NCBI RefSeq assembly: GCF_027941835.1
Contig: NZ_CP116005.1
Span: forward strand, 1,937,501 to 2,001,500
DNA from: Sphingosinicella microcystinivorans
GTDB lineage: Bacteria > Pseudomonadota > Alphaproteobacteria > Sphingomonadales > Sphingomonadaceae
Length of the DNA stretch: 64,000 nt
Direction: 5' to 3'
A program made the position numbers and the translations under genes. Below the pieces are notes generated by a model. The model was not told the DNA's origin. It made no database searches and saw nothing but the letters and a program-made list of their open reading frames with translations. Positions 2,002 to 18,313 of the stretch are shown here, piece after piece. The stretch's first letter is position 1; every line of letters starts with the position of its first letter.

Positions 2002-3216
2002 CTAGATCACGCCTTCGCGCCGCATTTCGGCGATCTCGGTGCCCGAAAGTCCCAGAAGGTCGTGGAAGACCGTGCTGTTGGCATCGCCGAGCGCTGGGCC
2101 CAGGTGCCGTACGCTTCCGGGGGTCAGCGAAAGCCGAGGAATGACGTTGGGGACGACACAGCTTTGCTGGTCGGCGTCCATCATCTCGACGAGATTTTTG
2201 CGGGCGGCGAACTGTTCGCTTGCGAATATGTCCGCGATCGTCTGGATCTCGGCGCATGGCACGCCGGCGCGATCGCACGCGGCCACGGCCTCGCGGGCGC
2301 TAAGGCCCGACAGCCAAGCTTCGACGACGCCGTTGATGTACGCGGCATCGTCCAGGCGTTGCCGGGTTGCGGCATAGCGGTCTACAGCCGCCAGCCCGGG
2401 TTTGCCGATCATGCGCGCGAACCGCGCAAACATCTTGTCGCTGGAGCAGGCGAGGGCGATCCATATGCCGTCGCCGCAGATGAAGTGTCCATGCGGGCAG
2501 GCGTTGATCGTGCCGACGCCGAGCCGCCCACGAACGGCGCCGGTTCGCGCGTAGGTCGGGGCGATGTCGTCGAGCATGCGGAAGATGGACTCGTAGAGCG
2601 CCAGATCGATGTACTGGCCGCCGACCTTGTCGCGCGCCTGCAGCGCGATCAGCACGCCGATCGCGCCGTAGAGGCCCGATATATAGTCGGCCAGCGAGGT
2701 CGAGCCAGGGGTCAGCGGCGGCCCGTCCGGTATCCCGGTCAGATGCGTCAGGCCACCGAAGGCGTGGGCGATACGGGCGAACCCGGGCTTGTCGCGCAAC
2801 GGTCCATCCTGACCGTAGCCCGACACGCGCAACATGATGAGTCGGGGGTTCTCCTGCAGCAGCGCCTCGAAGCCCACACCCCAGCCCTCAAGTGTGCCGG
2901 GACGAAAATTCTCGCACACCACGTCGGCCGAGCGCACGAGCTGCCGCAGCAGCGCGGCCCCCTTTTTGTGCGCAAGGTTGAGTGTGATCGAATGTTTGTT
3001 CCGCGCCTCGCTCAGCCAGCAAAGCGTTGCTCCGGGCGCAGACGGAGTGCCGAACTGCCGCAGCGGATCGCCCGCACCGGGCTTCTCGATCTTGATGACC
3101 TCGGCGCCGAACTCGCCAAGGATTGTTGCGGCATAAGGGGCGGCGATGAAGGTGCCGAGATCGAGGACCCGAATTCCTGCGAGCGGCAGAGGTTCGGTTT
3201 TCGATTCGTTGTCCAT
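2002..3216 (-). CDS. Family III CoA-transferase (CaiB/BaiF type)
   Basis: A 404-residue protein, the normal length for family III CoA-transferases, which move CoA from an acyl-CoA donor to a carboxylic acid without using ATP. The N-terminus PLAGIRVLDLGTFIAAPYAATILGEFGAEVIKIEKP is the classic CoA-binding Rossmann start. The probable catalytic aspartate lies in GSTSLADYISGLYGA. YGQDGPLRDKPGFARIAHAFGG is also typical. It is preceded by overlapping GTAT-N6-ATAC sites at 3281-3302 and is probably co-regulated with the aminotransferase. Its product would be an acyl-CoA entering beta-oxidation-like steps. Substrate unknown. Confidence 0.92.
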   Translation of the reverse strand: MDNESKTEPLPLAGIRVLDLGTFIAAPYAATILGEFGAEVIKIEKPGAGDPLRQFGTPSAPGATLCWLSEARNKHSITLNLAHKKGAALLRQLVRSADVVCENFRPGTLEGWGVGFEALLQENPRLIMLRVSGYGQDGPLRDKPGFARIAHAFGGLTHLTGIPDGPPLTPGSTSLADYISGLYGAIGVLIALQARDKVGGQYIDLALYESIFRMLDDIAPTYARTGAVRGRLGVGTINACPHGHFICGDGIWIALACSSDKMFARFARMIGKPGLAAVDRYAATRQRLDDAAYINGVVEAWLSGLSAREAVAACDRAGVPCAEIQTIADIFASEQFAARKNLVEMMDADQQSCVVPNVIPRLSLTPGSVRHLGPALGDANSTVFHDLLGLSGTEIAEMRREGVI

Positions 3217-3280
3217 GTTCGGTTTCTCGCCAACTGCCGGACGCGGAGCGCCTTCACGACCTCCTTAGCGACTCTTAATA

Positions 3281-3302: not shown

Positions 3303-3410
3303 TATAATGACCCAAGCCTCTCTGGTCGTGCTGCTGCGTCGAGCAGCGCCGAGAAGATGGTAGCATTGTCCGCCGTCAGCACCAATGGCACAGATTTGAG
3401 GTTGTGAAGT

Positions 3411-3471
3411 AAGGAGGATTTGGGCTTCGTCGTAGTGACGAAGGAACGAAGATGAAGCCCAAATCCTCCTT
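3411..3471. repeat. 17-bp perfect inverted repeat over the IS left end and orfA start
   Basis: AAGGAGGATTTGGGCTT (3411-3427) is perfectly complementary to AAGCCCAAATCCTCCTT (3455-3471). A smaller nested hairpin, CTTCGTC/GACGAAG, lies at 3425-3443. The right arm covers the first codons after the ATG at 3452, the expected orfA start. RNA transcribed from outside the element would fold over that start region. Confidence 0.75.
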
Positions 3472-3501
3472 GAAAAAATCGGCCAAGCCCCTGCGGAACG
3501 G

Positions 3502-3834
3502 GTGGTGAAGGATATCCGGCGCGCGACACGCCGGCACTTCTCAGCAGAGGACAAGATCCGGATCGTACTGGAAGGGCTGCGCGGCGAGGACAGCATCGCC
3601 GAGCTGTGCCGCAAGGAAGGCATAGCGCAGAGCCTGTACTATACCTGGTCGAAGGAGTTCATGGAAGCGGGCAAGCGGCGCTTGGCGGGCGACACCGCCC
3701 GTGCCGCGACCACCGGCGAGGTGCATGACCTGCGCCGCGAAGCCCGTGCGCTGAAGGAATGCGTCGCCGATCTGACGCTGGAGAACCGTCTGCTCAAAAA
3801 AAGCATGATCGCGGATGGGGAAGGCGGCGAATGA
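3502..3834 (+). CDS. IS3-family transposase OrfA (N-terminus shifted by a one-base deletion)
   Basis: Helix-turn-helix DNA-binding subunit of the transposase: RHFSAEDKIRIVLEGLRGEDSIAELCRKEGI and then YYTWSKEFMEAGKRRL, followed by a leucine-zipper-like helix (DLTLENRLLKKSM). The in-frame start seen here is a GTG at 3502. A better start exists at ATG 3452, giving MKPKSSLKKSAKPL, but that frame hits a stop after 18 codons. The two frames join cleanly if one base is restored near 3491-3494 (LPERVVKDIRR), so the copy probably carries a single-base deletion. An A7 run at 3796-3802 is a possible -1 slippage site for an OrfAB fusion. The stop overlaps the orfB start (ATGA). Confidence 0.82.
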   Translation: MVKDIRRATRRHFSAEDKIRIVLEGLRGEDSIAELCRKEGIAQSLYYTWSKEFMEAGKRRLAGDTARAATTGEVHDLRREARALKECVADLTLENRLLKKSMIADGEGGE

Positions 3835-4811
3835 GGTATCCCGCATCCGAGAAGCTGGAGATCCTCAGGATCGTCGAGCAATCGCACCTGCCGGCTAAAC
3901 GCACGCTGGACCAGCTCGGTATCCCGCGCAGAACCTTCTACCGCTGGTACGACCGTTACCTCGAGGGCGGCCCGGAGGCACTGGAGGATCGGCCATCGGC
4001 TCCAAGCCGAGTGTGGAACCGCATCGGCGATGATATCCAGCAGCAAATCATCGACATGGCGTTGGATACAACCGATCTGTCACCCCGCGAGCTCGCGGTG
4101 CGCTTCACCGACGAGAAGCGCTACTTCGTGTCGGAAGCCACGGTCTACCGTCTGTTGAAGGCCCATGACCTGATCACCAGCCCGGCCTTCATCGTGATCA
4201 AGGCGGCCGATGCGTTCCACACGAAGACGACACGGCCGAACGAGATGTGGCAGACCGACTTCACCTACTTCAAGATCATCGGGTGGGGCTGGGTGTATCT
4301 GTCGACCGTGCTCGACGACTTCTCCCGTTACGTCATCGCTTGGAAGCTGTGCACCACCATGCGTGCCGAGGACGTCACCGACACGCTGGAGCTGGCGCTC
4401 GAAGCCTCGGGTTGTTCTTCGGCCAGGGTCGTGCAAAAACCGAAGCTGCTCAGCGATAATGGTCCCAGTTATATCGCTGAAGAGCTGGCCGAATGGATCG
4501 GCGCCAACGGCATGAGCCATGTCCGCGGTGCCCCGATGCATCCTCAGACCCAGGGCAAGATCGAACGCTGGCACCAGACCCTCAAGAACCGCATCCTGTT
4601 GGAAAATTACTTCCTGCCCGGCGATCTGGAGGCCCAGATCGAGGCCTTCATCGACCACTATAATCACCGCCGATACCATGAAAGCCTCGGCAACGTGACG
4701 CCAGCCGACGCCTACTTCGGCAGGGCACCTGCCATCATCAAACAGCGCGAAAGGATCAAACGACAGACCATCGAACATCGGCGCTTGCTGCACCGCAAGC
4801 TCGCCGCCTAA
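3831..4811 (+). CDS. IS3-family transposase OrfB (DDE integrase domain)
   Basis: Catalytic subunit of the transposase, about 326 residues. An N-terminal helix-turn-helix region (RTLDQLGIPRRTFYRWYDRYLEGG) is followed by an HTH_21-like segment and the rve integrase core. The DDE residues are visible in MWQTDFTYF, LSDNGPSY and QGKIERWHQTLKN. The start ATG at 3831 overlaps the orfA stop. The same frame stays open upstream to 3759, as expected if frameshifting makes an OrfAB fusion. The gene is full length with no internal stop, so the element may still be mobile if OrfA function is retained. Confidence 0.93.
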   Translation: MRYPASEKLEILRIVEQSHLPAKRTLDQLGIPRRTFYRWYDRYLEGGPEALEDRPSAPSRVWNRIGDDIQQQIIDMALDTTDLSPRELAVRFTDEKRYFVSEATVYRLLKAHDLITSPAFIVIKAADAFHTKTTRPNEMWQTDFTYFKIIGWGWVYLSTVLDDFSRYVIAWKLCTTMRAEDVTDTLELALEASGCSSARVVQKPKLLSDNGPSYIAEELAEWIGANGMSHVRGAPMHPQTQGKIERWHQTLKNRILLENYFLPGDLEAQIEAFIDHYNHRRYHESLGNVTPADAYFGRAPAIIKQRERIKRQTIEHRRLLHRKLAA

Positions 4812-4841
4812 TATCAGCCCCCAGACGAGGCCCGCGCTCCG

Positions 4842-5621
4842 CTAATTTACGCCGCGAGTTGCGCCAAATGTTCTGACGACGGACAAGACCGCGAGGTCGT
4901 CCTCGGTGAACCAGTGCGGCATCGCGGCGGGAGTCGCGAAACGGTCGCGCAGGCGGGCGCCGCGCGGCAGGCACAGCGCCCCGGCGCGGATCAGTTCAAC
5001 GGGGTCGGCGCCTTCGAGGGAGAAGCCGGCCTCGATCATGGCGTCGCCGGAAACGCTCCAGGTGAGGTCGCGGACCCAGCCGGACACATCGGCCTCGATC
5101 TCGTCTATGATGTCCGAAAGGCCGCTGAAATACACCTGATAGAAGTCGAGATCGGGGCCCGAGATGCGGCGGTGGATTTCGTGCGGCGGCAGCTCGCCGA
5201 ACGGGTTTCCCGGCAGCGCGATCTGGCCCCGGCCGGAAAACGGCACGCTCATGCCGAGCACGCCCGTGAAGATTTCCGGATGCTGCCACGCTGCCGTCCA
5301 GACGACCGGCGCGCCCCAGTCGTGGCCGATGAGAATCGCGGTCTTCTCACCGAGCGCGCGGACCAGCCCGACGAGATCCGCGACCAGATGGCGCAGGCGA
5401 TAGCAGTCCGTCTGCCAGAACTTGGAGGATTGCCCGTAGCCGCGCTGGTCGATCGCGACGACGCGGTAGCCCTGCTCGGCGATCACCGGGATCTGGTAGC
5501 GCCACGAATACCAGAGCTCCGGAAACCCGTGGACGAGGATGACGAGCGGACCCTCGCCCATTTCCACGGTGTGGAGGCGGACGCCCCCGGCATCGACAAA
5601 GCCGTGTTTCCACGTACCCAT
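4842..5621 (-). CDS. Alpha/beta hydrolase, epoxide-hydrolase-like, truncated by the IS
   Basis: A 259-residue alpha/beta hydrolase resembling soluble epoxide hydrolases and haloalkane dehalogenases, families of usually 290-330 residues. Seen are the oxyanion-hole motif HGFPELWYSWRYQ, the RGYGQSS strand and the nucleophile elbow GHDWGAPV with aspartate as nucleophile. The cap region follows. The protein then stops at FGATRGVN, where relatives continue into a lid and the core carrying the catalytic histidine. The stop codon falls inside the right end of the insertion sequence. The catalytic His and the last strands are missing, so this copy is probably inactive. It is the last gene of a minus-strand operon behind a monooxygenase fusion. 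Confidence 0.85.
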   Translation of the reverse strand: MGTWKHGFVDAGGVRLHTVEMGEGPLVILVHGFPELWYSWRYQIPVIAEQGYRVVAIDQRGYGQSSKFWQTDCYRLRHLVADLVGLVRALGEKTAILIGHDWGAPVVWTAAWQHPEIFTGVLGMSVPFSGRGQIALPGNPFGELPPHEIHRRISGPDLDFYQVYFSGLSDIIDEIEADVSGWVRDLTWSVSGDAMIEAGFSLEGADPVELIRAGALCLPRGARLRDRFATPAAMPHWFTEDDLAVLSVVRTFGATRGVN

Positions 5622-5658: not shown

Positions 5659-8121
5659 TCAGGCGACGGGCGCCTTGCCGAAGTTCCTTTCGATAAGGCT
5701 TTTCCGGAACGTGAGTTTCGTGAAGAGCCACTTCCCGATCGCCCGCGCCACGACCGTCGGCCGCATCAGCACGCCCGGCGGCGAGACGAAATGGGTGACG
5801 GAGAGATAGAGACGGTAGACGTCCGGCGCGTCGTGCATCAGCTCCATGACGCGGTCGATGTACCAGTTCTGCAGCTTCGCGAACGGCGGGCGCTTCTTCT
5901 CCACGTCCTTGATCCACGGGAAGCGCAGGTTCTGCTCGCGGATCACCGCCCAGACGAGGTCTTCAAGGCCCGAGACGTCCTGATAATAGGCCCTGACCGC
6001 TTCGGGGGCGCGCAGATCGGATGTTCGCAGGGCCTCGCGGAGCCTGCCGATCTCGAGCAGCGCCTTGGTCATGCCGGCGCCGGAAATCGGATCGGCACTC
6101 GACAGCGAGTCGCCGACGGCGATCAGCCCGCCGGGCACGCGGCCGAGCCGCTCGTAATGGTAGCGCTGCATCGTCGGATAGCGGAAGTTGTAGACCGGCG
6201 AGCACGGCTCGTAGTGATCGAGCTCCTCGCCCATGACCGGCGTCGGCATACGGTCCGCGAAGGCCCGGAACTCCTGCGCGTTGCGGGGCGGGTCATAGCA
6301 GTCGTAGCCGACGAGCGTGGTCGCCATGACGGTCCTGCTGCTGTCGGTGTAGTATTGGCAGCCGTAGTATTTCTGGTGCGGGCGGTAGCAGTAGCTGAGA
6401 ACCATCACCTTGTCGTTCCAGACGCGGTCGGCGGGAACGCGGTGGTACATCGTGGAATAGAAGCAGCTGATATGGTCCTCTTCCAGTTCCGGAACGGGGA
6501 AGCCGTGCCTTGAAAGTATGTCCGGAACCGGCGTGTTCTTGCCTGCCGCGTCGACGACGAGCTCGGCCGCGACGACCTCGCCGGATTCCGTCACCGCGCC
6601 GAGCACGGAACCGGAATCGGGATCGAACACCAGATCGCGGACCGCCTGCTCGTAGCGGTAGTCGATGGCGGGCTCGTCATCGAGCCGCCGCCGCAGGCAC
6701 CATTCGAGAAGCGGCCGGCCGGCGCAGACGATGTCGATGCCGCTTCTGACGACCTTCTTCCAGGAGCCTGCAAGCAGGATGCGGTATTGCTCGCCCATGT
6801 CGACGCGGAACGCGCCCGCCGCGACCATGTCGTCGATGATGCCAGGGAACACCGCTTCGGCCTCCCGCTGGCCGGCGATCAGCAGGTGGTGCAGATGCCA
6901 GCCCTGCGCCGCGCCGGGGCGCCCCTCGGTTCGCCGGTGGGTCTGGTCCTTTTCGAGGACGATCACCTTCTCATAGTGCTCCGAAAGCGCCTTCGCGGTG
7001 ACGATGCCGGCAATCGAGCCGCCGATGACGAGGGCCGTTCCCCGGCCCGCCGTTCGCAGCTCTTCCGGGCGGGGGATGGCAAGCGGCGTTTTCGCGTCCT
7101 CGGCGTCTTGTCTGCGGGCGCTGGGCAGGAACTTCTCGAAATAGAGATTCGCCGCGGCGAGCTTGCGGGTCTCGATCCAGTCGCGAGCGGCTTCCACCAT
7201 CGGCGCCGGGCCGCACAGGTAGACGTCGGCGTTGCCGCCGTTGAAGTCGTCCGCGTCGAACAGGTCCGTCACGAGCCCGGTCGCCCCGGTCCAGCCGGAC
7301 GAGGGTGTCGAGACGATCGTCTTCCACCGGAAATTGCTGTTTGCCGTCGCCAGCCGCTCGAGCCGGTCGGTCAACACGAGATCGGGCGCTTCATTGACGC
7401 CGTAGTACAGCGTGACCGGCACGGAGACCTGCCCGGCGACGAGCTGCCCGGCCATCGCCAGCACGGCGGAGAGGCCGGTGCCGCCCGCCACCAGAACGAT
7501 CGGCCGCTTCACGTCGCGCAGCCAGAAACCGCCCTTGGGGCCGCGCATCTCCACAAGATCGCCGGGACGCGCGCGCTCCAGATAGGCGGACATCACGCCG
7601 CCGGGTTGCAGGCGGATCAGGAATTCGGCTTCGCCGCCCGCGAAATCCACATCGGTGAAGGAATAGCTGCGCCATTCCGAAGTCCCGGGGACCTTGAGCT
7701 GGGCGAATTGCCCCGGCTGTGCCGCGAACGGGCCGTCGAACGCGGAGATGTCGAGGGTGAGCAGGACGACGTTGTCGGAGAGCCTGCGGACCGCGGTCAC
7801 GGCGCATGTGCCGGAGAGGACGCGCGCGGCGTTATCGGCCAGAGGATAGTCGAATGCGATGACGCAATCGGACGCGGCGCGGGTCTGGCACGCGAGGATA
7901 CGGCCTATGTCCTTCTCAGGTTGGCTCAGCCCGATCGAATAGCCCTGCTCATATTGACCCGACAGGCACTTGCCCACACAGGTGCCGCACACGCCGGCCT
8001 CGCAGGCGTGCACGATCGGAACGCCTGCCTCCTCCGCTGCATCGAGAATCGTCTGCGCAGGCCCAACCGCCAGCGTGCGGCTCGCGCCGTCTGAATAGCG
8101 AACTTCAACCTTGTACGTCAT
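5659..8121 (-). CDS. Fused ferredoxin / FAD-NAD reductase / flavoprotein monooxygenase
   Basis: An 820-residue three-part fusion starting at ATG 8121. Residues 1-90 are a plant-type [2Fe-2S] domain with cysteines 40, 45, 48 and 78. Residues about 100-325 are a BenC-like ferredoxin reductase, with the RSYS flavin motif at 151-154, GGTG at 213-216 and YLCGPAPMVEAA at about 301-312. From about residue 362 a second FAD domain begins (GGSIAG at 367-372) and runs to the end, with a late GDSLSSADPISGAGMTKAL flavin motif. The last part resembles LasC- or squalene-epoxidase-like and geranylgeranyl-reductase-like oxidoreductases. The arrangement suggests a self-supplied NAD(P)H-driven monooxygenase or epoxidase. 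A hydrolase of epoxide-hydrolase type follows 37 bp downstream. Domain calls are firm; the epoxidation role is inferred. Confidence 0.85.
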   Translation of the reverse strand: MTYKVEVRYSDGASRTLAVGPAQTILDAAEEAGVPIVHACEAGVCGTCVGKCLSGQYEQGYSIGLSQPEKDIGRILACQTRAASDCVIAFDYPLADNAARVLSGTCAVTAVRRLSDNVVLLTLDISAFDGPFAAQPGQFAQLKVPGTSEWRSYSFTDVDFAGGEAEFLIRLQPGGVMSAYLERARPGDLVEMRGPKGGFWLRDVKRPIVLVAGGTGLSAVLAMAGQLVAGQVSVPVTLYYGVNEAPDLVLTDRLERLATANSNFRWKTIVSTPSSGWTGATGLVTDLFDADDFNGGNADVYLCGPAPMVEAARDWIETRKLAAANLYFEKFLPSARRQDAEDAKTPLAIPRPEELRTAGRGTALVIGGSIAGIVTAKALSEHYEKVIVLEKDQTHRRTEGRPGAAQGWHLHHLLIAGQREAEAVFPGIIDDMVAAGAFRVDMGEQYRILLAGSWKKVVRSGIDIVCAGRPLLEWCLRRRLDDEPAIDYRYEQAVRDLVFDPDSGSVLGAVTESGEVVAAELVVDAAGKNTPVPDILSRHGFPVPELEEDHISCFYSTMYHRVPADRVWNDKVMVLSYCYRPHQKYYGCQYYTDSSRTVMATTLVGYDCYDPPRNAQEFRAFADRMPTPVMGEELDHYEPCSPVYNFRYPTMQRYHYERLGRVPGGLIAVGDSLSSADPISGAGMTKALLEIGRLREALRTSDLRAPEAVRAYYQDVSGLEDLVWAVIREQNLRFPWIKDVEKKRPPFAKLQNWYIDRVMELMHDAPDVYRLYLSVTHFVSPPGVLMRPTVVARAIGKWLFTKLTFRKSLIERNFGKAPVA

Positions 8122-8204: not shown

Positions 8205-8576
8205 CTATTTGGAGCGATCGTCCCCGGATGCGCCGGAATCTTGCTGCGCGAGTATCCAGACCGCGATCTTGCGGGCCTGCTCATCGGACATGCGCGGGTA
8301 GGCAACCATCGGGACCTGCCCCCACGTCCCGGCGCCGCCGCGCTGGATCTTGAGCCTGAGGCGTTCGACCGCAACGGCGTCCGCGCCTTCATAGACAGCG
8401 GCGACATCGCGGAAGGCGGGACCGATGCGGGTCTCCTCGATGTCATGGCAGCCGTTGCAGCCGAAATCGTTGAACACGATCCTCGCCTCTTCCCGCGTCC
8501 AGAGCGCGCCCTCCGCGGCCGGGTTTCCGGCGGCGGCCGCACCGGCGAAGAGGATGGCCGGGAACAGGAAATGCAT
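8205..8576 (-). CDS. Small periplasmic class I cytochrome c
   Basis: A 123-residue single-heme cytochrome starting at ATG 8576. A short hydrophobic signal peptide (MHFLFPAILFAGAAAAG) precedes the heme attachment site C40-N-G-C43-H44. The likely axial methionine is M90 in GTWGQVPM, and the C-terminal helix is SDEQARKIAVWIL. This matches the c551/c552 group of soluble electron carriers. It lies 17 bp downstream of a beta-propeller protein that also carries a CxxCH motif, so the two probably work together in the periplasm, the small cytochrome taking electrons toward the terminal oxidase. Confidence 0.9.
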   Translation of the reverse strand: MHFLFPAILFAGAAAAGNPAAEGALWTREEARIVFNDFGCNGCHDIEETRIGPAFRDVAAVYEGADAVAVERLRLKIQRGGAGTWGQVPMVAYPRMSDEQARKIAVWILAQQDSGASGDDRSK

Positions 8577-8593
8577 CGGTGCTTCCTTTTCGA

Positions 8594-10390
8594 TCAGTCG
8601 CCGACGTCGATGAGAAGACCCATCGAGGGGCCGGACCCGGCCGGATAGTTGCCGTAGGTGGCGACGAGCTGCCCGGTGTGCGGATGCACGGCGATCTGGC
8701 GCAGGAACGCCATCTTGCGCGGCAGCGGATAGACGGTCACGTCGCCGCTGTCGGGATCGAGCCGGTAGATGGAGTCGCTGTTGGCCGTTGCGACCCAGAC
8801 CGTCTTGCGGCGTTCGTCCCATGTGACGGCATAGGGCGCGCTGGCGCGGTCGGGCAGATCGTAGGTGCGAAGCACGCGGCCCGCGCGCATGTCGATGCTC
8901 GCCACCTGACCGGTGCCGAACAGGGCGACCCACAGGCGCCCCGCGTTGTCCCGCATCATCCGGCGCGGACCGGTGCCTTCCGTGAACTCGACCAGCTTCG
9001 TGACCGTGTTCGTCTGCGTGTCGAAGCAGCCGACATGGCCGTTGACCTGCGAATACCATGCGTAGCGGCCATCCTCCGACAGGACGGTCGAATAGATCAG
9101 GTGGTTGATCGGGCTGAGGCCATTGATGGTGTTGGTATCATAAAACGAGACCTCGCCGGAATCCGGGTGCAGCGACCCCATCTGGTTCGTGCCGACAAGC
9201 GTGACCCAGATGCGCCCGGCCTGATCGCGCGCCAGATGCCCGCGCGAATCGATCGACATGTCGTGCACGATCGCCGCGCCCGCGAGCGACGGGTCCGTCG
9301 GCAGGTTCCCGGGCCGCAGGGTCCACAGCTTCCAGCTTTCGGTCTTCGGATCGAAGCGGCCGAACTGGTCGTTGTCCACCATCGAAATCCAGAGATGGCC
9401 GGTATCGTCCGGCACGATCGTGTGCGGTCCGGTCGATCCCTTGAAGTCGACGGGATACCATTTGGTCACGCCGGTCCTGGGATCCAGCCTCGCCAGCAGG
9501 TTGCGCCTGACGTCGGCGCCCCACAGGAACGGATCGGCGGGCGACGGCACGAGCTCGCGCACGAGCGCGTCGTCCGGAAACGGATATTCCCTGATGGTTG
9601 TTCTGGCCGTCACGCCGAGCGGCGCGCCGAGAGAATAGTCGTCGACCGAAAGCTGGTCCATCGCGCCGTGGAAATTCCCGGCAAGATACTGCGCTATGGT
9701 TTCGCCCTGATTCTCAGTGAAGAAATTCAGATTGGCGTCGATCGCGGTGGGCCAGTCGATGGCGTTGAGGTTCATAGCGCTTTCGATGGGGAGAACCGAG
9801 TAGTGCTGGGTCCGCATGTACTTGACGATGGTGCGCCATGCCTCGTGGCGGACGACCTTTCGCCACTCTTCGAGCGCGCGGCGGTCTCCGTCCGGGCCGC
9901 CGCGGACGGCGTCGATCTTCGCCGCGTAGTCGCGCATCTTCGGGCTGCCGGTCTGGTGGCAGCTCGAGCAACTGGCGATGGTGACGTTCCGGCCAGTGCC
10001 GGCCGGAGCGCGCGCAAACCACGCGGAAGCCGGGGCCTGAGAGGCAATATTGGCCGTGGGTTCGAGGAACAGCGTGGTTTCCCCGCCCGCTTGCGCGCCC
10101 GATGCGCCCTTCACCTGCCGGAAACCGAGCTTGTCGGCGGCCAATCCGGCGCCGGGAGCGGGCGCGGCCTTCGCATCCTCGAAGGTGAAGCGCCCTTCGT
10201 CGTCCGTGAACACGGTTATGGCGGCGGGTCCCGCCGTGCCGGAAGGCATGGAGAGCGTCACCATCGCCTGCAGCACCGGCTGCCCGTCGTGCAGGCCGAT
10301 CACGCGCCCGACGAACTTTGCCGAGGCCGGCGCGCTGAGGCCGATGAACGCTGCGCCGAGCAGCAGCCACGCTACAGAGTCTTTTCCCAT
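8594..10390 (-). CDS. Secreted heme-motif protein with Vgb/NHL-type beta-propeller
   Basis: A 598-residue exported protein. It has a signal peptide (residues about 1-24, ending APASA), a carboxypeptidase-regulatory-like or transthyretin-like domain (about 25-112), one CxxCH heme site (C141-SS-C144-H145) and, from about 255 to the end, a six-bladed-type propeller with repeated GHLWISMVDN, GRIWVTLVGTN, GRLWVALFGTG and KTVWVATANSD elements, as in virginiamycin B lyase-like proteins. The combination suggests a periplasmic redox or lyase enzyme that passes electrons to the adjacent small cytochrome. Antibiotic lyase activity should not be assumed from the fold. Neighbours indicate a role in the same catabolic operon. 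Confidence 0.85.
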   Translation of the reverse strand: MGKDSVAWLLLGAAFIGLSAPASAKFVGRVIGLHDGQPVLQAMVTLSMPSGTAGPAAITVFTDDEGRFTFEDAKAAPAPGAGLAADKLGFRQVKGASGAQAGGETTLFLEPTANIASQAPASAWFARAPAGTGRNVTIASCSSCHQTGSPKMRDYAAKIDAVRGGPDGDRRALEEWRKVVRHEAWRTIVKYMRTQHYSVLPIESAMNLNAIDWPTAIDANLNFFTENQGETIAQYLAGNFHGAMDQLSVDDYSLGAPLGVTARTTIREYPFPDDALVRELVPSPADPFLWGADVRRNLLARLDPRTGVTKWYPVDFKGSTGPHTIVPDDTGHLWISMVDNDQFGRFDPKTESWKLWTLRPGNLPTDPSLAGAAIVHDMSIDSRGHLARDQAGRIWVTLVGTNQMGSLHPDSGEVSFYDTNTINGLSPINHLIYSTVLSEDGRYAWYSQVNGHVGCFDTQTNTVTKLVEFTEGTGPRRMMRDNAGRLWVALFGTGQVASIDMRAGRVLRTYDLPDRASAPYAVTWDERRKTVWVATANSDSIYRLDPDSGDVTVYPLPRKMAFLRQIAVHPHTGQLVATYGNYPAGSGPSMGLLIDVGD

Positions 10391-10534: not shown

Positions 10535-12199
10535 TCACGCGCAGGACGGGAGGAACGCGAAATCGGCGAGGTCCGGCCCGCGCAGCATCCGTTCCCGGAA
10601 TTCCTGCGGCGTCCGCGTCCAGATCGTGACCGTGCCGTTCGCATCGAGATACCAGCTCTTGCAGCCCGAGAGCCAGATCGTGTCCCGCGCGTGGCTCTGC
10701 ATTTCGGCGACGAACCGCTGCTGGGCCTCGGCGCGCGGCACGACGGCATCGGCGCCGCTGTCTTCCAGCGCGTTGATCAGGCGCATGATGTAAGCAGTCT
10801 GCAATTCGGTGCAGCTCATCGTCGAGAGATTCCCGACCGTCGAATAGGGTCCGCCCAGCACGAACAGGTTGGGGAAGCCGCTGACGGCGACGGATTCGAA
10901 GCTTGCGGCGCCGTCTTTCCAGCTTTCCTCGAGGGACGGCCCGCCCGCCACCGAGATGTTCAGCGGCCGGCAGAACGCGTGGGTCTTGAAGCCGGTCGCC
11001 AGCACGAGCACGTCGAGTTCGTGCAGGGCGCCGTCCGCCGTTACGATGCCTTCGGGCACGACCTTGCCGACGGGTTCCGTCACCAGATGAACCGACGGAT
11101 CCTGCAGGTCGCGGTAGTAGGTGCTCGAAAAGACGAGACGCTTGCACATGATGGGATAATCCGGCGTCAGCTTGCGGCGCAATTCCTCGTCCCTGATCGT
11201 TTCGAGGTTGGCGACGCAGGCGGACCGGAAGACTTCCTGCGCGTCCTGATTTCCGACGACGGCCGTGCCGAATTCGCCATTGTACCACGCGGCGAAAAAC
11301 TCGAACAATCGGCCCATGAGTTCCGGGTAGCGCGACAGAACCTGCTTGCGCCGTTCGGAATAATGCTCGTTCGGATAGGGAAACACCCATTGCGGGGTGC
11401 GCTGGAACACCGACACGCTTTCGGCCTTGCCGGCAAGCGCGGAGACGATCTGCACGGCGCTGGAGCCGGTGCCGACGACGCCGATCTTCAATTCCTTCGG
11501 ATCGAGACTGGGGTCCCATTGCGTGCTGTGCACGGCCTGTCCGTGAAACGTGTCGAGGCCCGGTATGTCCGGCCGGTGCGGGACGTGCAGGAAGCCGACC
11601 GCGGAGATGAGGATGTCCGCGTCCAGCGCGCGGCCTCCGGTCAGGCGGATATGCCAGTGATCCTGCTCGTAGGTGCAGGACGTGACCTCGGAATCGAAGC
11701 GGATCAACGGCGTGATGCCGTAGGTGTCCGCGACGCCTTGCAGATAGGCGCGAATCTCGTCTCCCGGCGCGAACATCTGCGACCATCCCGGATTGAGATG
11801 GAAGCTGAAGCAGTAATAATAGGACGAGACGTCGCAGGCGACGCCGGGATACCGGTTGTGATGCCAGGTGCCGCCCGGCTCGCCCGCCTTTTCGAGGATG
11901 GTGATGTCGGTGAACCCGGCCTGCCGCAAACGCACGGCCATGCAGATGCCGCCGACGCCCGCGCCGACGATCACGATCGCGGGCTGCTTGCGCCGGGGAT
12001 CGTGGGCCTTGAATGCGGCCGGAATCATGGGAGGGAGGGGATCGCCGGTTTCCTCGGGAGGCAATTCGAGCAGCTGGCGCTCGATCCCGGCCTGGAGATC
12101 GGCGAGTTCCTGCGCCCGTTCTTCCGGGCCTCCGGACCGCAGCCGTTCCATCTCCGTGGAAATCCAGAGGTCAGCCAGACGTCTCGCTTCTGCAACCAT
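10535..12199 (-). CDS. Baeyer-Villiger-type flavin monooxygenase
   Basis: A 554-residue class B flavoprotein monooxygenase that would insert an oxygen next to a ketone, giving an ester or lactone. After a helical N-terminal extension of about 70 residues it has the FAD Rossmann motif VGAGVGGICMAVRL, the Baeyer-Villiger signature FHGQAVHSTQW and the second NADPH-binding motif VVGTGSSAVQ. Late elements VLATGFKTHAF and NLFVLGGPYS are typical. It is the first gene of a minus-strand operon. Its promoter region carries TTGACA and a 23-bp palindrome shared with two plus-strand operons, so it is probably repressed by the TetR encoded at 16566-17210. The substrate is probably cyclic, by inference from context. 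Confidence 0.92.
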   Translation of the reverse strand: MVAEARRLADLWISTEMERLRSGGPEERAQELADLQAGIERQLLELPPEETGDPLPPMIPAAFKAHDPRRKQPAIVIVGAGVGGICMAVRLRQAGFTDITILEKAGEPGGTWHHNRYPGVACDVSSYYYCFSFHLNPGWSQMFAPGDEIRAYLQGVADTYGITPLIRFDSEVTSCTYEQDHWHIRLTGGRALDADILISAVGFLHVPHRPDIPGLDTFHGQAVHSTQWDPSLDPKELKIGVVGTGSSAVQIVSALAGKAESVSVFQRTPQWVFPYPNEHYSERRKQVLSRYPELMGRLFEFFAAWYNGEFGTAVVGNQDAQEVFRSACVANLETIRDEELRRKLTPDYPIMCKRLVFSSTYYRDLQDPSVHLVTEPVGKVVPEGIVTADGALHELDVLVLATGFKTHAFCRPLNISVAGGPSLEESWKDGAASFESVAVSGFPNLFVLGGPYSTVGNLSTMSCTELQTAYIMRLINALEDSGADAVVPRAEAQQRFVAEMQSHARDTIWLSGCKSWYLDANGTVTIWTRTPQEFRERMLRGPDLADFAFLPSCA

Positions 12200-12613: not shown

Positions 12614-13804
12614 GTGCTGCTTTCATCCGAGTTGCAGGCCTTTCGGGACGAGGTGCGGCGGTTTTGCGCGGACGAGCTGCCCGTACATCTCCGTGCGAAA
12701 GTGCTACACAATCAGAAGCTGGAAAAAGCCGATTACATCGGGTGGCAGCGGACGCTCGACCGTAAGGGCTGGTTCGCCGGCCACTGGCCCGTCGAGCATG
12801 GCGGACTGGGCTGGAGCGCGCTGAAGCGCTGGATCTTCGAGGAAGAGCTTTACGCGGCCGGCGCACCCTGGCTGATTCCCTTCGGCATCTCCTACGTGGG
12901 GCCCGTCATCTACACCTTCGGCAACGAGACGCAGAAGCGGACGCATCTGGGGCCGATCCGGCGTTCGGAAATCTGGTGGGCGCAGGGGTATTCGGAACCG
13001 GGCGCGGGGTCCGATCTCGCCAGCCTTTCGACGCGGGCGGTGCGCGACGGCGATCATTATCGCGTGACGGGCCAGAAAATCTGGATCTCCTACGCGCACT
13101 GGGCCGACAAGATGTTCCTGCTCGCGCGGACCTCGACGGAAGGCAAGCCGCAGGACGGCATCTCCTTCCTGCTGCTCGACATGGAAACGCCCGGTATCGT
13201 CGTGCGCCCGATTCCGACCATCGACCGGTATCATCACGTGAACGAGATTTTCCTCGATGACGTGAAGGTGCCCGCCGCCAACCTCGTCGGCGCGGAAAAC
13301 CGCGGCTGGACGCAGGCCAAGTTCCTGCTGGACAGGGAGAGGCTGCTGACCGCCGAGGTTGGCAAGGCGAAGCGGCTGCTGCAGCGGCTGCTCGGCCTTG
13401 CCCGCATGACGCCTTCGGGAAGCGGATCGCTCGCCGGGGACCGGCACTGGCGCCTGAAGTTCGCGGAGATCTATTCGGAAACGCTGGCGCTCGAGGCGAC
13501 CTGCCTCGATCTGCTGACCGAGGCGCAGAACGGCCGCGACCCCGGCCCCGTCGCTTCCATGCTCAAGATCGTCGGCTCCGAGCTTCTGCAAAGGATAAAC
13601 GGAATGACGATCGACGTGCTCGGCCGTCACGGGCTGGCCTATGACACCTCCGGGCTCTCGGCGGACGATCCGATGACCGGGCCTGCGCAGTTCGCGGGCA
13701 GCGTCCGCGAATATCTCTATTCGCGCGTGCTCAGCATCTATGGCGGCAGCAACGAAATCCAGCGCAACATCATCGCGCGCGCCGTGCTCGGGCTCGGCCG
13801 GTAA
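12614..13804 (+). CDS. Acyl-CoA dehydrogenase, probable subunit of a heteromeric pair
   Basis: A 396-residue FAD acyl-CoA dehydrogenase with a GTG start at 12614. It has WWAQGYSEPGAGSDLASL (flavin and substrate loop), VTGQKIWISYAHWAD and the C-terminal IYGGSNEIQRNIIARAVLGLGR. At the usual catalytic position (YEGT in medium-chain enzymes) it has glycine, as in subunits of the alpha2beta2 dehydrogenases known from actinobacterial steroid side-chain degradation. The stop overlaps the start of a second, shorter dehydrogenase (TAATG), supporting an obligate partner. It is the first gene of the operon behind operator copy 2. Confidence 0.92.
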   Translation: MLLSSELQAFRDEVRRFCADELPVHLRAKVLHNQKLEKADYIGWQRTLDRKGWFAGHWPVEHGGLGWSALKRWIFEEELYAAGAPWLIPFGISYVGPVIYTFGNETQKRTHLGPIRRSEIWWAQGYSEPGAGSDLASLSTRAVRDGDHYRVTGQKIWISYAHWADKMFLLARTSTEGKPQDGISFLLLDMETPGIVVRPIPTIDRYHHVNEIFLDDVKVPAANLVGAENRGWTQAKFLLDRERLLTAEVGKAKRLLQRLLGLARMTPSGSGSLAGDRHWRLKFAEIYSETLALEATCLDLLTEAQNGRDPGPVASMLKIVGSELLQRINGMTIDVLGRHGLAYDTSGLSADDPMTGPAQFAGSVREYLYSRVLSIYGGSNEIQRNIIARAVLGLGR

Positions 13805-14937
13805 TGGCGATGCTTGAACCGGACATCGCCCGGCTGTTCGAGCGCGAGGTCGACCGCTTCCTGGCGGACCGGAGTCCGGCGGACCACACCGGCGCGGCGG
13901 CGGCGGGCGGCTGGCAGGCCTATGCCGATCTCGGCTGGCTCGGCATCATGGTGCCGGAAGCGTATGGCGGCATGGGCGGTGGGCTGTCCGACTATCTGAT
14001 CGTCGCGCGCGGCATCGGCGGTGCGCTCTTGAAGGCGCCGATCACCCTCGCGGCCGTCGTCGGCACGGAACTCGCGCTTCACGTGGACGACGAGGGCCAA
14101 CGGCAGACGCTGCTGAACGGACTTTGCGACGGTTCGCTGGTCCCCGGCCTCGTCCGGTCCGGGGCCGATACGCCGGGCGCCGGAAGCGAACCCGTGACGG
14201 CATCGCCGGACGCCGGCGGCGTGCGGCTGACGGGGCGCTGCTTTTGCGTTCCGCACGCCGGGGATGCGAACCTCCTGCTGGTCGTCGCGCGGTCGGTGGG
14301 AGGAGACGATGGCCTCTATCTCGTGAATCCGGCGTCGGACGGGCTGGAACTGCACAGCTATCCGATGATCGACGATCGCAACGCGGCGACGGTGACATTC
14401 GATCGCGTGTTCGTGCCGGGCGATCGCAGGCTCGCCATGTCTTCGGTGGCTGCGGCGATGGAAAAGGCGGGCCTGTCGGCAGCGGTGGCGACCGCGGCCG
14501 AGGCGGCCGGGGCGATGCGCGCGCTCAACGAGCTGACGCTTGAACATGTCCGGTCGCGGCGGCAGTTCGGCCGGGCGCTCGCGGACTTCCAGGTCCTCCA
14601 GCACCGGCTGGTCGACATGATGATCGCGGAGCGGCGGTCCGCGGCGATCGTCAGGACGGCGGCGGAAGCGATCGACACGGGTTCACCCTTCGCGGCCCGG
14701 CTGACCGCGGCCGCGAAGATCACGGCCGACCGGGCCGGGCGTTTCGTCGGAGAGGCCGCGATCCAGCTTCACGGCGGCATGGGGATGAGCGAGGAATGCG
14801 CGGCGGGCCGGTATCTCAAGCGCCTGCTGTATCTCGCCCAGAGCTGGGGCGTCGCCGACGATCATCTCGATCGCCTGGCCGACACGATCATGGATGAATT
14901 GGAGCAGGAAACCGCTGATGTCCGGCATGACGCGTAA
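13804..14937 (+). CDS. Acyl-CoA dehydrogenase, probable partner subunit
   Basis: A 377-residue, more divergent acyl-CoA dehydrogenase. Visible are MVPEAYGGMGGGLSDYLIVARGIGG, the EHVRSRRQFGRALADFQVLQHRLVDM helix and IQLHGGMGMSEECAAGRYLKRLLY near the C-terminus. The loop between about residues 105 and 150 is less conserved than in the first subunit. It starts one base inside the stop of the upstream dehydrogenase, so the two are translationally coupled and probably form a heterotetramer. It would introduce a double bond into a CoA-activated acid. A bulky cyclic substrate is suggested only by comparison with steroid-degrading pairs. Confidence 0.9.
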   Translation: MAMLEPDIARLFEREVDRFLADRSPADHTGAAAAGGWQAYADLGWLGIMVPEAYGGMGGGLSDYLIVARGIGGALLKAPITLAAVVGTELALHVDDEGQRQTLLNGLCDGSLVPGLVRSGADTPGAGSEPVTASPDAGGVRLTGRCFCVPHAGDANLLLVVARSVGGDDGLYLVNPASDGLELHSYPMIDDRNAATVTFDRVFVPGDRRLAMSSVAAAMEKAGLSAAVATAAEAAGAMRALNELTLEHVRSRRQFGRALADFQVLQHRLVDMMIAERRSAAIVRTAAEAIDTGSPFAARLTAAAKITADRAGRFVGEAAIQLHGGMGMSEECAAGRYLKRLLYLAQSWGVADDHLDRLADTIMDELEQETADVRHDA

Positions 14938-16537
14938 CCGCCCGGCCGTGGACCGCTACGCTGCGTCTGGCGTCTGGCGCGAGCGGACCGTTGCGATGGA
15001 CGCGCTCGACCGCGCGCTCGCCGATCCGGACGGCGCCGTGTTCGTCGGCGAGGACGCGCCGTGGACATATGCGTCGGTGATGTCCGATGCCGAGGCGCTG
15101 GCGGCGAGCCTCCACGATCTTGGCCTCAGGCCCGGCGACGTGCTGAGCTTTCAACTGCCCAACTGGCCGGAAACGGCGGTCATCAATCTCGCCGCCTGCC
15201 GGCTGGGCCTCGTGTGCTGCCCTCTGGTGCCGATCTACCGCGACAACGACCTGTCGTTCATGCTGCGGGATTCGCGAAGCCGGATCCTGTTCATCCCCGG
15301 CACGTTCCGCGGCTTTTCCTACACGGAGATGCTGGAGCGGTTGAGGGCGTCGCTGCCGGACCTGCACATCGTGACCGTGCGCAGCCGCGCGCCGGGGATG
15401 CCGGATTTCGGGGATCTGGTGGCGGCGGGCGCCGGGCGCCGCCTCGATTGGCCCGAGGTCTCGCCGCGAGCCACGAAACTGCTGCTCTATACATCGGGCA
15501 CCACCGGTCTGCCGAAAGCGGTTCTGCACGACCACAACACGCTCGCGCGCGCCATATCGGTGAGCGCGGACCACTGGGGCGTGCGGGGCGGAGACGTGGT
15601 GTTCATGCCGTCTCCGGTCACGCACGCCACCGGCTACAGCAACGCGCTCGAGCTTCCGTTCATGGCGGGAACCCGCTGCCTGCTGATGGAGCGGTGGGAA
15701 TCAGCCGCCGCGGTCACGCTGATCGACAAGCACCAGGCCACGATGACGGTCGGCGCCACGCCGTTTCTCAAGGAACTCACGGCGTCGGCGCTGGCGGTGG
15801 CGTCCGACCTTCCCAGTCTGCGGATCTTCGCCTGCGGAGGCGCATCGGTGCCGGAGACGGTCATCGACGCGGCAAACGCGGCGTTCAGACAGAAGCCTGC
15901 CTTCCGCGTCTACGGCAGCACGGAAGCACCCTATATCACGCTCGGCTTTGCGGGCTCCGACCCGGCACGCCGAGGCGCGACGACGGATGGCGCCGTCGTC
16001 GACTACGAGGTGCGGGTGCTAGATGACGCCGGCGCGGACCTTCCGCGTGGAAGCGAAGGCGAGATCGCCGTGCGCGGCCCCTCGCTGTTTCGCGGCTATC
16101 TGCGCGAGGAAGACAACCAGAGCAGCTTCACCCCGGACGGCTTCTTCCTGACCGGCGACATCGGCATCTATCGCGACGACGGGGCGATCCTGATCACCGA
16201 CCGCAAGAAGGACCTGATCATCCGCGGCGGCGAGAACATCAGCGCCAGGGAAATCGAGCACTATCTTCATCGCCACCCGGCCGTTTCCGAAGCCTCCGTC
16301 GTGGCCATGCCGCACGTCCGGCTGGGTGAGGGCGTATGCGCCTTTGTCATACCGGAGGACGGGCGGACGCTCACCTTGGGCGAACTCGCCGACTTCCTGC
16401 TGGCCGAGCGGCTCGCCCCGCAGAAGGTGCCCGAGCGGCTGGAAATTTTGCTGGACTTTCCGCGCACCCCATCTGGTAAGGTCAGAAAAAACGTACTGCG
16501 GCAGATGGCGCTTGAAAGCCCTGCCGACGGGGGGTGA
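14918..16537 (+). CDS. Acyl-CoA synthetase (AMP-dependent ligase)
   Basis: About 539 residues from ATG 14918, overlapping the previous gene by 20 bases; an in-frame ATG at 14894 is also possible. AMP-binding motifs are LLLYTSGTTGLPKAVLHDH, the adenine-binding YGSTEAP, the FLTGDIG aspartate, DRKKDLIIRGGENISAREIE and the C-terminal catalytic lysine in TPSGKVRKN. It activates a carboxylic acid to its CoA thioester using ATP. The closest type is the cyclohexanecarboxylate- or fatty-acid-CoA ligase group. The position after two acyl-CoA dehydrogenases implies it makes their substrate. Confidence 0.92.
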   Translation: MSGMTRNRPAVDRYAASGVWRERTVAMDALDRALADPDGAVFVGEDAPWTYASVMSDAEALAASLHDLGLRPGDVLSFQLPNWPETAVINLAACRLGLVCCPLVPIYRDNDLSFMLRDSRSRILFIPGTFRGFSYTEMLERLRASLPDLHIVTVRSRAPGMPDFGDLVAAGAGRRLDWPEVSPRATKLLLYTSGTTGLPKAVLHDHNTLARAISVSADHWGVRGGDVVFMPSPVTHATGYSNALELPFMAGTRCLLMERWESAAAVTLIDKHQATMTVGATPFLKELTASALAVASDLPSLRIFACGGASVPETVIDAANAAFRQKPAFRVYGSTEAPYITLGFAGSDPARRGATTDGAVVDYEVRVLDDAGADLPRGSEGEIAVRGPSLFRGYLREEDNQSSFTPDGFFLTGDIGIYRDDGAILITDRKKDLIIRGGENISAREIEHYLHRHPAVSEASVVAMPHVRLGEGVCAFVIPEDGRTLTLGELADFLLAERLAPQKVPERLEILLDFPRTPSGKVRKNVLRQMALESPADGG

Positions 16538-17387: not shown

Positions 17388-17425
17388 ATATCAAGATCAA
17401 GACAATCCGGGTGAGGGGAATATTG

Positions 17426-18313
17426 GTGCAAAGCGAGTCGTCTCCCGTTGTTTATGCCGTGGACAGCGCCGGTATCGCGCGCATCACGCTCAATCGGCCC
17501 GAAACCGGCAATGCCCAGAATGTCGCGATGACCTATGCGCTGAACGCTGCGTTCATGCGTGCCGCGCACGACAATGCGGTTCGGGTGATCATCCTCCGCG
17601 GCGCCGGAAAGCATTTCTCCACCGGGCACGATCTCAAGGACCAGACTTTCGATGCCGTGGGGCGCGACTATCCGCTGACATCGACGTGGGCCGACATTGA
17701 TCTCGACAGCATCGAGGGCTGGTACGGCTGGGAACGCGAGGCCTTCCTCGACATGTGCAGGCGCTGGCGGTCCATCCCCAAGCCGGTCATCGCCGAGGTG
17801 CGCGGCGCCTGCATCGGCGGCGGCCTGATGCTGGCGTGGGTCTGCGACCTGATCGTCGCGGCGGAGAACGCGTTTTTTCAGGACCCCGTGGTCGCGTTCG
17901 GCATCGGCGGTGTCGAGTACCTGTCCCACGCCTGGGAACTGGGCGCGCGGCAGGCCAAGGAAAAGCTCTTCACGACGGACCGGTGGACTGCCGAAGACGC
18001 GCTTGCGTGGGGCATGGTGAACCGCGTGGTGCCGCTGGACGCGCTAGAGCAGACGACGCTGGAACTGGCGCAGAAGATCGCAGCGAAACCCGCCTTTGCG
18101 CTGAAGATGGCCAAGGAGGCGATCAACGGCTCGCTGGACGCGCAAGGTATGCAGCAGGCGATCGATCGGGGCTTTGCCCTGCATCAGCTCGCCCACGCGC
18201 AGAATCGTCTGAAGTTCGGCGGATTGCTCGACCCCACCGGATTGCCCGAAGCGATCAAGGCGTCGGGCGAGGTGTGCGAGCTCGTCATCGGAAAGTCGAC
18301 CGGCGAGGCTTGA
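17426..18313 (+). CDS. Enoyl-CoA hydratase/isomerase
   Basis: A crotonase-fold protein of about 295 residues. GTG 17426 is chosen because GAGGGG lies 7-8 bases upstream; an in-frame GTG at 17411 lacks a ribosome site. Motifs are ITLNRPETGNAQN, the oxyanion-hole GKHFSTGHDLKD and RGACIGGGLMLAWVCDLIVAAENA. The C-terminal helices (FALKMAKEAINGSLDAQGMQQAI) are normal. It hydrates or isomerises an enoyl-CoA, probably the product of the acyl-CoA dehydrogenase pair. It heads the transcription unit downstream of operator copy 3. Confidence 0.92.
   Translation: MQSESSPVVYAVDSAGIARITLNRPETGNAQNVAMTYALNAAFMRAAHDNAVRVIILRGAGKHFSTGHDLKDQTFDAVGRDYPLTSTWADIDLDSIEGWYGWEREAFLDMCRRWRSIPKPVIAEVRGACIGGGLMLAWVCDLIVAAENAFFQDPVVAFGIGGVEYLSHAWELGARQAKEKLFTTDRWTAEDALAWGMVNRVVPLDALEQTTLELAQKIAAKPAFALKMAKEAINGSLDAQGMQQAIDRGFALHQLAHAQNRLKFGGLLDPTGLPEAIKASGEVCELVIGKSTGEA

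What the first reader, a model, noticed from the sequence alone, without database searches (positions are those of the whole stretch)
5659..8121. Self-contained monooxygenase: ferredoxin, reductase and epoxidase-like flavodomain in one chain
A BenC-like electron-transfer module (2Fe-2S, FAD, NAD) is fused to a full second FAD oxygenase domain of the squalene-epoxidase/LasC sort. Such partners are normally separate proteins. An epoxide-hydrolase-like gene follows 37 bp downstream, suggesting epoxidation then ring opening.
Basis: partly seen in the sequence, partly recalled or inferred. Interest (0 to 1): 0.6.

Follow-up and report, generated by a model that had tools for sequence, protein, structure and literature searches.

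The report
Fused reductase–epoxidase enzyme, MelG relative
One bacterial protein joins an NADH-driven electron-supply module to a flavin enzyme of an epoxide-making type; it is the relative of a mycobacterial infection-locus protein (MelG) that has been compared with a bioluminescence reductase, and its neighbours suggest that it makes epoxides for the hydrolase encoded next door.

Summary
Residues 1-335 are a BenC/AntC-type reductase (2Fe-2S, FAD, NAD). Residues 358-798 match the polyether epoxidases Lsd18/LasC and MonCI (Z 39 and 38; aromatic hydroxylases about 29). It is no assembly error: 28 other loci in Mycobacterium and Proteobacteria encode the same chain at 51-61% identity, cofactor residues invariant.

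The family is not new. The gene next door is a relative of M. tuberculosis EphB (MelH), and the mycobacterial gene order matches the published mel2 locus, so the protein is a MelG (Rv1937) relative. MelG has been compared with the reductase LuxG; in the passages I read nobody calls it an epoxidase.

New here: 27 of 28 loci hold an epoxide hydrolase near the fusion. EphB lies directly downstream in 25; two of the three without it have an unrelated limonene-epoxide-hydrolase-type gene. This supports MelG making the epoxide that MelH opens.

In this genome the hydrolase is cut by an IS3-type element, lacks the part with its catalytic acid and His, and has no intact close relative elsewhere, so 'epoxidation then ring opening' is doubtful here. 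Epoxidation, internal electron transfer and substrate are inferred, not shown.

The parts
5659..8121 (-). Fusion gene (MelG relative), 820 aa: BenC-type reductase + Lsd18/MonCI-type FAD monooxygenase
7876..8091 (-). 2Fe-2S ferredoxin domain (residues 11-82); C40, C45, C48, C78 invariant in 29 rows
7525..7806 (-). FAD-binding domain of the reductase (residues 106-199); R151, Y153, S154 invariant
7183..7494 (-). NAD-binding domain of the reductase (residues 210-313); G213-G216 and C303-G304-P305 invariant
7042..7116 (-). Linker (residues 336-360): 0 of 25 residues invariant; model pLDDT under 50 at 329-345
5728..7041 (-). Lsd18/LasC/MonCI-type FAD monooxygenase domain (residues 361-798); GGSIAG 367-372, H411 (= Lsd18 His71), GD 670-671
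4842..5621 (-). Truncated EphB/MelH-type epoxide hydrolase ORF, 259 aa; EphB similarity ends at window 4884, the rest of the ORF runs into the IS end
3366..4886 (.). IS3-type element (transposase ORFs 3502-3834 and 3759-4811, plus; imperfect terminal inverted repeat 15 of 17) that cuts the hydrolase gene
8205..8708 (-). Cytochrome c-type ORF upstream of the fusion (also near the fusion in L001 and L002)
8594..10390 (-). Vgb-type beta-propeller ORF with a CxxCH motif (also near the fusion in L001 and L002)
10535..12199 (-). Baeyer-Villiger-type flavin monooxygenase (best PDB hit cyclohexanone monooxygenase, E 2.3e-69)
12614..13804 (+). Acyl-CoA dehydrogenase; a relative lies near the fusion in 23 of 28 other loci
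13804..14937 (+). Second acyl-CoA dehydrogenase
14894..16537 (+). AMP-binding acyl-CoA ligase
17411..18313 (+). Enoyl-CoA hydratase family gene
2002..3216 (-). CoA-transferase family III gene beyond the IS element

Best explanation
The gene encodes an NADH-driven, single-chain flavin epoxidase of the MelG family. Most likely course: NADH reduces the FAD of the BenC-type module; electrons pass one at a time through the 2Fe-2S cluster to a second FAD in the Lsd18/MonCI-type domain; reduced FAD and O2 form C4a-hydroperoxyflavin, which puts oxygen onto a C=C bond of a hydrophobic, probably terpenoid- or steroid-like substrate; an EphB/MelH- or LEH-type hydrolase then opens the epoxide, and dehydrogenase, CoA-ligase and acyl-CoA-dehydrogenase genes of the same clusters degrade the product. 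Shown: domain order, folds, invariant cofactor residues, wide conservation, gene company. Inferred: electron transfer to the second flavin, epoxidation, substrate class, order of steps. In this genome the hydrolase step is broken by an IS element.
For: C-domain: best sequence hits LasC and MonCI; Z 39.1/37.8 against about 29 for the next families. The Lsd18 His71 that stacks on the flavin (PMC12144862, passages) aligns with H411, invariant in 29 of 29 rows, and GGGMAG with GGSIAG. All four Fe-S cysteines and the FAD and NAD motifs are invariant in the 29. Conserved in 28 other loci and whole in 32 of 198 genomes of the mycobacterial genus sampled (the chosen centre G487 included). EphB relative directly downstream in 25 of 28 loci; LEH-type gene in 8 of 28, among them 2 of the 3 that lack EphB; LEH is uncommon (1 of 14 control genomes) and this one keeps the residues that I recall as catalytic. 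A standalone Lsd18/MonCI-type gene (MonCI E 5.7e-58) with its own EphB and SDR paralogs lies beside the fusion in L011, L013 and L020. MonCI acts on farnesyl esters and takes NADH, with about 20% more product when a flavin reductase is added (PMC10560226, passages). The recombinant neighbour MelH hydrolyses epoxides (PMC11036813, passages).
Against: No activity is shown for this protein or, in what I read, for any relative. The fold also serves aromatic hydroxylation and halogenation. MonCI is described as reduced by NAD(P)H without a fused partner, so the reductase could serve another acceptor. [quoted passage not shown] L016 has neither EphB nor LEH in the 18.4 kb held. In the window the hydrolase is truncated and the LLM, flavin-reductase, RibBA-like, SDR and LEH genes of other loci were not found in its first 24 kb at the cut-offs used. 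MelH was reported to turn over styrene oxide and vitamin K1 epoxide, and its natural substrate is unknown.
Confidence: 0.6

Rival explanations
1. The C-terminal domain is a hydroxylase or another oxygenase (fold of PHBH/KMO/Bmp2), fed by the same fused reductase; the hydrolase next door acts on a lactone or another ester, for instance the product of the Baeyer-Villiger enzyme.
For: PHBH, KMO and halogenase Bmp2 structures align at Z about 29; a Baeyer-Villiger-type gene lies in the window.
Against: Lsd18/MonCI stand about 9 Z units above these, and only LasC and MonCI chains pass E 1e-5 by sequence. The neighbour is an EphB relative (E 3.4e-133 for the L001 copy), EphB/MelH is a measured epoxide hydrolase, and LEH-type genes of an unrelated fold co-occur.
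Confidence: 0.2
2. The protein is mainly a reductase (LuxG-like): the N-module makes reduced flavin for a partner such as the luciferase-like monooxygenase (MelF), or consumes oxidants, and the C-domain is regulatory or a side activity.
For: Published lux analogy for melF-melK (PMC1793995, passages). The LLM gene directly precedes the fusion in 17 of 17 mycobacterial loci.
Against: The LLM gene was found in 0 of 11 proteobacterial loci. The C-domain is the more conserved half: 130 of 380 residues invariant at 361-740 against 82 of 335 at 1-335. In M. tuberculosis a melH mutant, not the melG mutant, was the oxidant-sensitive one (PMC11036813, passages), which fits a toxic-intermediate model (inference).
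Confidence: 0.1
3. In this genome the cluster is a recently acquired and decaying catabolic island: the fusion still encodes a whole enzyme, but the pathway is interrupted.
For: Fusion absent as a full-length match from 198 other genomes of the family and 5 of the genus; hydrolase cut by an IS3-type element, its 3' part not found in the genome.
Against: The 820-codon frame is intact, all invariant residues are kept, and neighbouring catabolic genes are open. GC of the fusion gene (0.661) is near the window's 0.644. This may hold together with the best explanation.
Confidence: 0.1

Closest known systems
MelG (Rv1937) of the mycobacterial mel2 locus (melF-melK)
   Same: Published domain list with fer2, NAD-binding and FAD-dependent oxidoreductase domains (PMC1793995, Figure 2 legend); directly followed by EphB/MelH; mycobacterial loci have LLM - fusion - EphB - flavin reductase - RibBA-like - SDR in that order where all are present (e.g. 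L004, L020, L023, L026, G596).
   Different: The window host is not a mycobacterium; LLM, flavin-reductase, RibBA-like and SDR genes were not found beside it; a Baeyer-Villiger gene and cytochrome c genes are; the MelH homolog is truncated.
Lsd18/LasC and MonCI, polyether epoxidases (described as class A flavin monooxygenases)
   Same: Fold (Z 39.1/37.8), FAD motif, flavin-stacking His, length of the domain.
   Different: They are standalone proteins of polyketide biosynthesis, 23-25% identical; here a reductase is fused in front and the gene company is catabolic.
BenC/AntC, reductases of benzoate and anthranilate dioxygenase
   Same: 2Fe-2S, FAD and NAD domains in the same order; AntC model match over 1-335 (315 bits).
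   Different: Below the curated cut-offs (402 and 430 bits); fused to a flavin monooxygenase instead of serving a Rieske oxygenase.
StyA2B styrene monooxygenase (epoxidase fused to a flavin reductase)
   Same: Epoxidase and reductase in one chain (PMC6017014 and PMC4460183, search listing with abstract start).
   Different: There the epoxidase is N-terminal and the reductase is a StyB-type FAD reductase; here the reductase is N-terminal, of BenC type, with an Fe-S cluster.
Human squalene epoxidase
   Same: Fold (Foldseek E 3.9e-17, TM 0.68 by target).
   Different: 15% identity in that alignment; no Pfam match in this half of the protein; takes electrons from a separate reductase (recalled).

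Membership tests
MelG (mel2) family | Fer2 + FAD/NAD reductase + FAD-dependent oxidoreductase in one chain | tested here: met
   published domain list read in passages
MelG (mel2) family | Directly followed by an EphB/MelH gene | tested here: met
   37 bp downstream; EphB match E 1.2e-83 over residues 6-244, but the gene is truncated
MelG (mel2) family | MelF-, MelI-, MelJ- and MelK-type neighbours | tested here: not met
   Not found in the first 24 kb of the window at E <= 1e-10 and the identity cut-offs used. So: a relative of MelG, not a mel2 locus
MelG (mel2) family | Direct sequence comparison with Rv1937 or M. marinum MelG | not tested
   Neither named sequence was obtained. Orthology rests on gene order and on EphB: the EphB beside the fusion in the unnamed G596 matches M. 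tuberculosis EphB at E 4.9e-227
Lsd18/MonCI-type epoxidases | Fold and domain extent | tested here: met
   Z 39.1, rmsd 2.4, 429 residues
Lsd18/MonCI-type epoxidases | FAD motif GGGMAG and flavin-stacking His71 | tested here: met
   GGSIAG 367-372; H411 aligned and invariant in 29 rows; the 398-411 loop of the model is under pLDDT 50
Lsd18/MonCI-type epoxidases | Epoxidation of alkenes | not testable with these tools
   needs an assay
BenC/AntC equivalogs | NCBIfam curated score | tested here: not met
   AntC 315.1 of 402, BenC 285.6 of 430 bits
BenC/AntC-type reductase module (wider) | 2Fe-2S cysteines, RxYS, GGTG and CGP motifs | tested here: met
   C40, C45, C48, C78; R151-Y153-S154; G213-G216; C303-P305 invariant in 29 rows
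Pfam families of flavin monooxygenases for the C-domain (squalene epoxidase among them) | Pfam match | tested here: not met
   No Pfam family matched residues 314-820 at E <= 0.001
StyA2B-type self-sufficient monooxygenases | Flavin_Reduct-type (StyB-like) reductase domain | tested here: not met
   The reductase is Fer2 + FAD_binding_6 + NAD_binding_1. That StyB is of the Flavin_Reduct type is recalled
EphB/MelH epoxide hydrolase (downstream ORF) | Complete catalytic set (Asp nucleophile; acid and His near the C-terminus) | tested here: not met
   GHDWG with the nucleophile is present; the match ends at EphB residue 254, so positions 302 and 333 are missing. Which residues are catalytic is recalled

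The most novel reading that the evidence does not exclude
MelG is not a lux-like reductase but a self-contained epoxidase, and MelG plus MelH (EphB) form a make-and-open epoxide pair inside a lipid-like catabolic route. The mycobacterial mel2 locus would then be a catabolic module shared with Nevskiales-type proteobacteria, and its oxidant phenotype a side effect of unquenched epoxide or aldehyde when MelH is lost.
Probability: 0.5. Interest if true: 0.75.

Novelty: new member of a known kind. Interest (0 to 1): 0.55.

Why it matters
The natural substrate of MelH and the biochemistry of the mel2 locus are stated to be open (PMC11036813, passages). Reading MelG as the epoxide source gives a direct test, and harmless environmental relatives, including a proteobacterial set with a different hydrolase, can be used for it. 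As an enzyme, an epoxidase that carries its own NADH-to-2Fe-2S chain would also be useful: Lsd18/MonCI-type enzymes are at present assayed with added flavin reductase.

Tried and rejected
Assembly error: rejected (28 other loci, no stops inside the match). Three of the mycobacterial copies seen are frame-broken: both copies in G616 (one exactly in the linker) and the copy in G567 near residue 650. Whether these are read errors or real splits is open; they are described only.

A second mycobacterial fusion suggested by long open frames around BenC-like hits turned out to be another architecture: BenC-type reductase + FCD + short-chain dehydrogenase, next to a Rieske oxygenase (L076, L077). It is not evidence for the MelG architecture.

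Squalene epoxidase proper and aromatic hydroxylase as first choice: ranked below Lsd18/MonCI. Geranylgeranyl-reductase-type function was considered: no such family appears among the 25 NCBIfam rows shown of 30 for the protein or the 50 structures shown; this does not exclude it.

Plasmid origin: 0 of 1085 plasmid records with a match hold 80% of the protein in one place. DNA-level search of plasmids with 6 kb gave at most 6% query cover in the rows shown.

Paper searches on fused ferredoxin/flavin-reductase epoxidases, StyA2B-type fusions, zeaxanthin epoxidase with ferredoxin and limonene epoxide hydrolase clusters gave no paper whose listing described this architecture; I opened none of those hits. 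'mel2' + 'epoxid' + 'Mycobacterium' + 'oxygenase' gave 0 papers; 'Rv1937' or 'melG' gave 69, of which 40 were listed, most of them unrelated. Subscription papers, such as the 2009 and 2013 mel2 and Mce3R papers, were not seen.

Rows dropped: for the tree 8 of 25 standalone rows (L060-L067) were left out as too distant; L068 was never extracted. The tree is the 'quick' kind and warns of long branches.

Full report
What is there. The finding's coordinates hold one intact minus-strand gene of 820 codons. Its first 335 residues are a plant-type 2Fe-2S ferredoxin domain, a FAD-binding and a NAD-binding domain, most like anthranilate and benzoate dioxygenase reductases but below their curated cut-offs. 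The remaining 460 residues have no Pfam match. By sequence their only PDB relatives at E 1e-5 are the epoxidases LasC/Lsd18 and MonCI (9 distinct chains). An AlphaFold model from 29 aligned relatives (pLDDT 82, pTM 0.73) places residues 358-798 on Lsd18 (Z 39.1) and MonCI (Z 37.8), clearly above p-hydroxybenzoate hydroxylase, kynurenine monooxygenase and Bmp2 (about 29), and residues 1-334 on BenC (Z 30.0, with a large rmsd of 10.3). No structure search tested the relative placement of the two halves.

Conservation. A scan of one genome per species found 28 loci with the same full-length architecture: 17 mycobacterial and 11 proteobacterial (Nevskiaceae such as Solimonas, Nevskia, Panacagrimonas and Sinimarinibacterium; Lysobacteraceae; Parvibaculum; unnamed Gammaproteobacteria). 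The scan works from six short peptides of the query, so 28 is a lower bound. Identity to the window protein is 51-61% and every cofactor motif is invariant, while the linker 336-360 has no invariant residue. In a sample of 198 genomes of the mycobacterial genus, 32 hold a whole copy (the chosen centre included), one more a copy broken near residue 650, and one two frame-broken copies. No full-length match appears in 198 other genomes of the window's family or in 5 others of its genus, one of these of the same species but only 78% complete. Among 289 genomes of its class (G000 included), 20 hold a match to the C-domain; the 18 other loci extracted lie in frames of 440-568 aa with at most 76 residues in frame before the match, so they are standalone. 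On a tree of 48 C-domains the 29 fused ones fall on one side of a fully supported branch, consistent with one fusion event; the window groups with L001 and Parvibaculum (99), and the 17 mycobacterial rows are one clade joined to Nevskia/Panacagrimonas rows.

What it is called. The hydrolase next door is a relative of M. tuberculosis EphB (E 3.4e-133 for the intact L001 copy; 1.2e-83 for the truncated window copy). EphB is MelH, Rv1938 (PMC11036813, passages). The mycobacterial loci have the order acyl-CoA dehydrogenases, enoyl-CoA hydratase (divergent), then LLM - fusion - EphB - (flavin reductase) - RibBA-like - SDR, then mostly a double-TetR regulator. This matches mel2, whose legend lists luciferase, fer2, NAD, FAD-dependent oxidoreductase, hydrolase, FMN reductase, DHBP synthase/GTP cyclohydrolase II and dehydrogenase (PMC1793995, passages). 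In the unnamed mycobacterium G596, whose EphB matches the M. tuberculosis chain at E 4.9e-227, the same order holds. So the fusion is a relative of MelG (Rv1937 by position: mel2 is given as Rv1936-1941 and MelH as Rv1938). I did not compare it with a named MelG sequence. One abstract calls mel2 specific to M. marinum and M. tuberculosis (PMC5584760); the gene set is in fact found in many environmental mycobacteria.

Why epoxidation. (1) The fold and sequence relatives above. (2) The flavin-stacking His of Lsd18 is kept as H411. (3) Gene company: an EphB relative starts within about 60 bp of the fusion's end in 25 of 28 loci; an LEH-type gene (PDB limonene-1,2-epoxide hydrolases, E 3e-18) lies in 8 of 28; two of the three loci without EphB (L009, L027) have LEH about 1 kb downstream; only L016 has neither in the stretch held. 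Several loci end at contig ends, so counts of neighbours are lower bounds. EphB and LEH are unrelated folds (recalled), so one seems to stand in for the other. (4) In L011, L013 and L020 a standalone gene closer still to MonCI (E 5.7e-58) sits with its own EphB and SDR paralogs. (5) Reported mutants: loss of melH, not of melG, raised oxidant sensitivity, which is what one expects if MelG makes and MelH removes a reactive product (my inference). The authors themselves stress redox defence and found the natural substrate unknown.

Pathway. Acyl-CoA dehydrogenase relatives lie in 23 of 28 loci; those of the window match PDB chains of heteromeric acyl-CoA dehydrogenases, which I recall as steroid side-chain enzymes. 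A Baeyer-Villiger gene, CoA ligase, enoyl-CoA hydratase, CoA-transferase and TonB receptors are near in the window. In mycobacteria the gene before the fusion is most like 3,6-diketocamphane monooxygenase (E 6.3e-71). This suggests an alicyclic, terpenoid- or steroid-like substrate, but no substrate is shown.

In this genome. EphB similarity stops at window 4884, the end of an IS3-type element (3366-4886, terminal repeat 15 of 17). The lost part would hold the acid and His. The genome has no other close EphB relative (next best 36% over about 100 residues) and no LEH.

Verdict. Real, conserved and already on record as an architecture (MelG), but with a new and testable functional reading. New member of a known kind; interest 0.55, because it turns an open question about mel2 into a simple enzyme assay.

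Noticed in passing
window 3366-4886: IS3-type element with 15-of-17 terminal inverted repeats cuts the EphB-type gene; the hydrolase's 3' part was not found in the window or genome.
   Followed up: yes
L076:416-3019 and L077:1612-4626: Mycobacterial single frames with BenC-type reductase + FCD (regulator-type) domain + short-chain dehydrogenase, next to a Rieske oxygenase alpha subunit (Pfam-tested for L076): an odd fusion with a regulator domain inside. Similar long frames appear around BenC-like hits in a number of other genomes.
   Followed up: partly
L011, L013, L020 (about 13.5-18.4 kb); L008 14654-16004: Second cassette of a standalone MonCI-like monooxygenase with EphB and SDR paralogs beside the fusion locus; in L008 the monooxygenase matches in several frames.
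   Followed up: partly
window 8205-10390; L001 and L002: Cytochrome c plus Vgb-type beta-propeller genes with a CxxCH motif accompany the fusion only in the window, L001 and L002 among the 29 loci, the same three that group on the tree. Function unknown.
   Followed up: no
L078 (G616) 1264-3791: Reductase and monooxygenase lie in two overlapping frames split exactly at the linker; a second copy in the same genome (L079) is broken in several places. Read error or natural split is open.
   Followed up: partly
L012:11598-12698 and relatives: RibBA-like proteins in the mycobacterial loci match only about 100 of 165 positions of the GTP cyclohydrolase II model and fall below the RibBA cut-offs, so they may not make riboflavin precursors.
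   Followed up: no
L025:12652-13653 (and L007 in the same cluster): PaaA-type phenylacetyl-CoA epoxidase subunit near the fusion locus.
   Followed up: no
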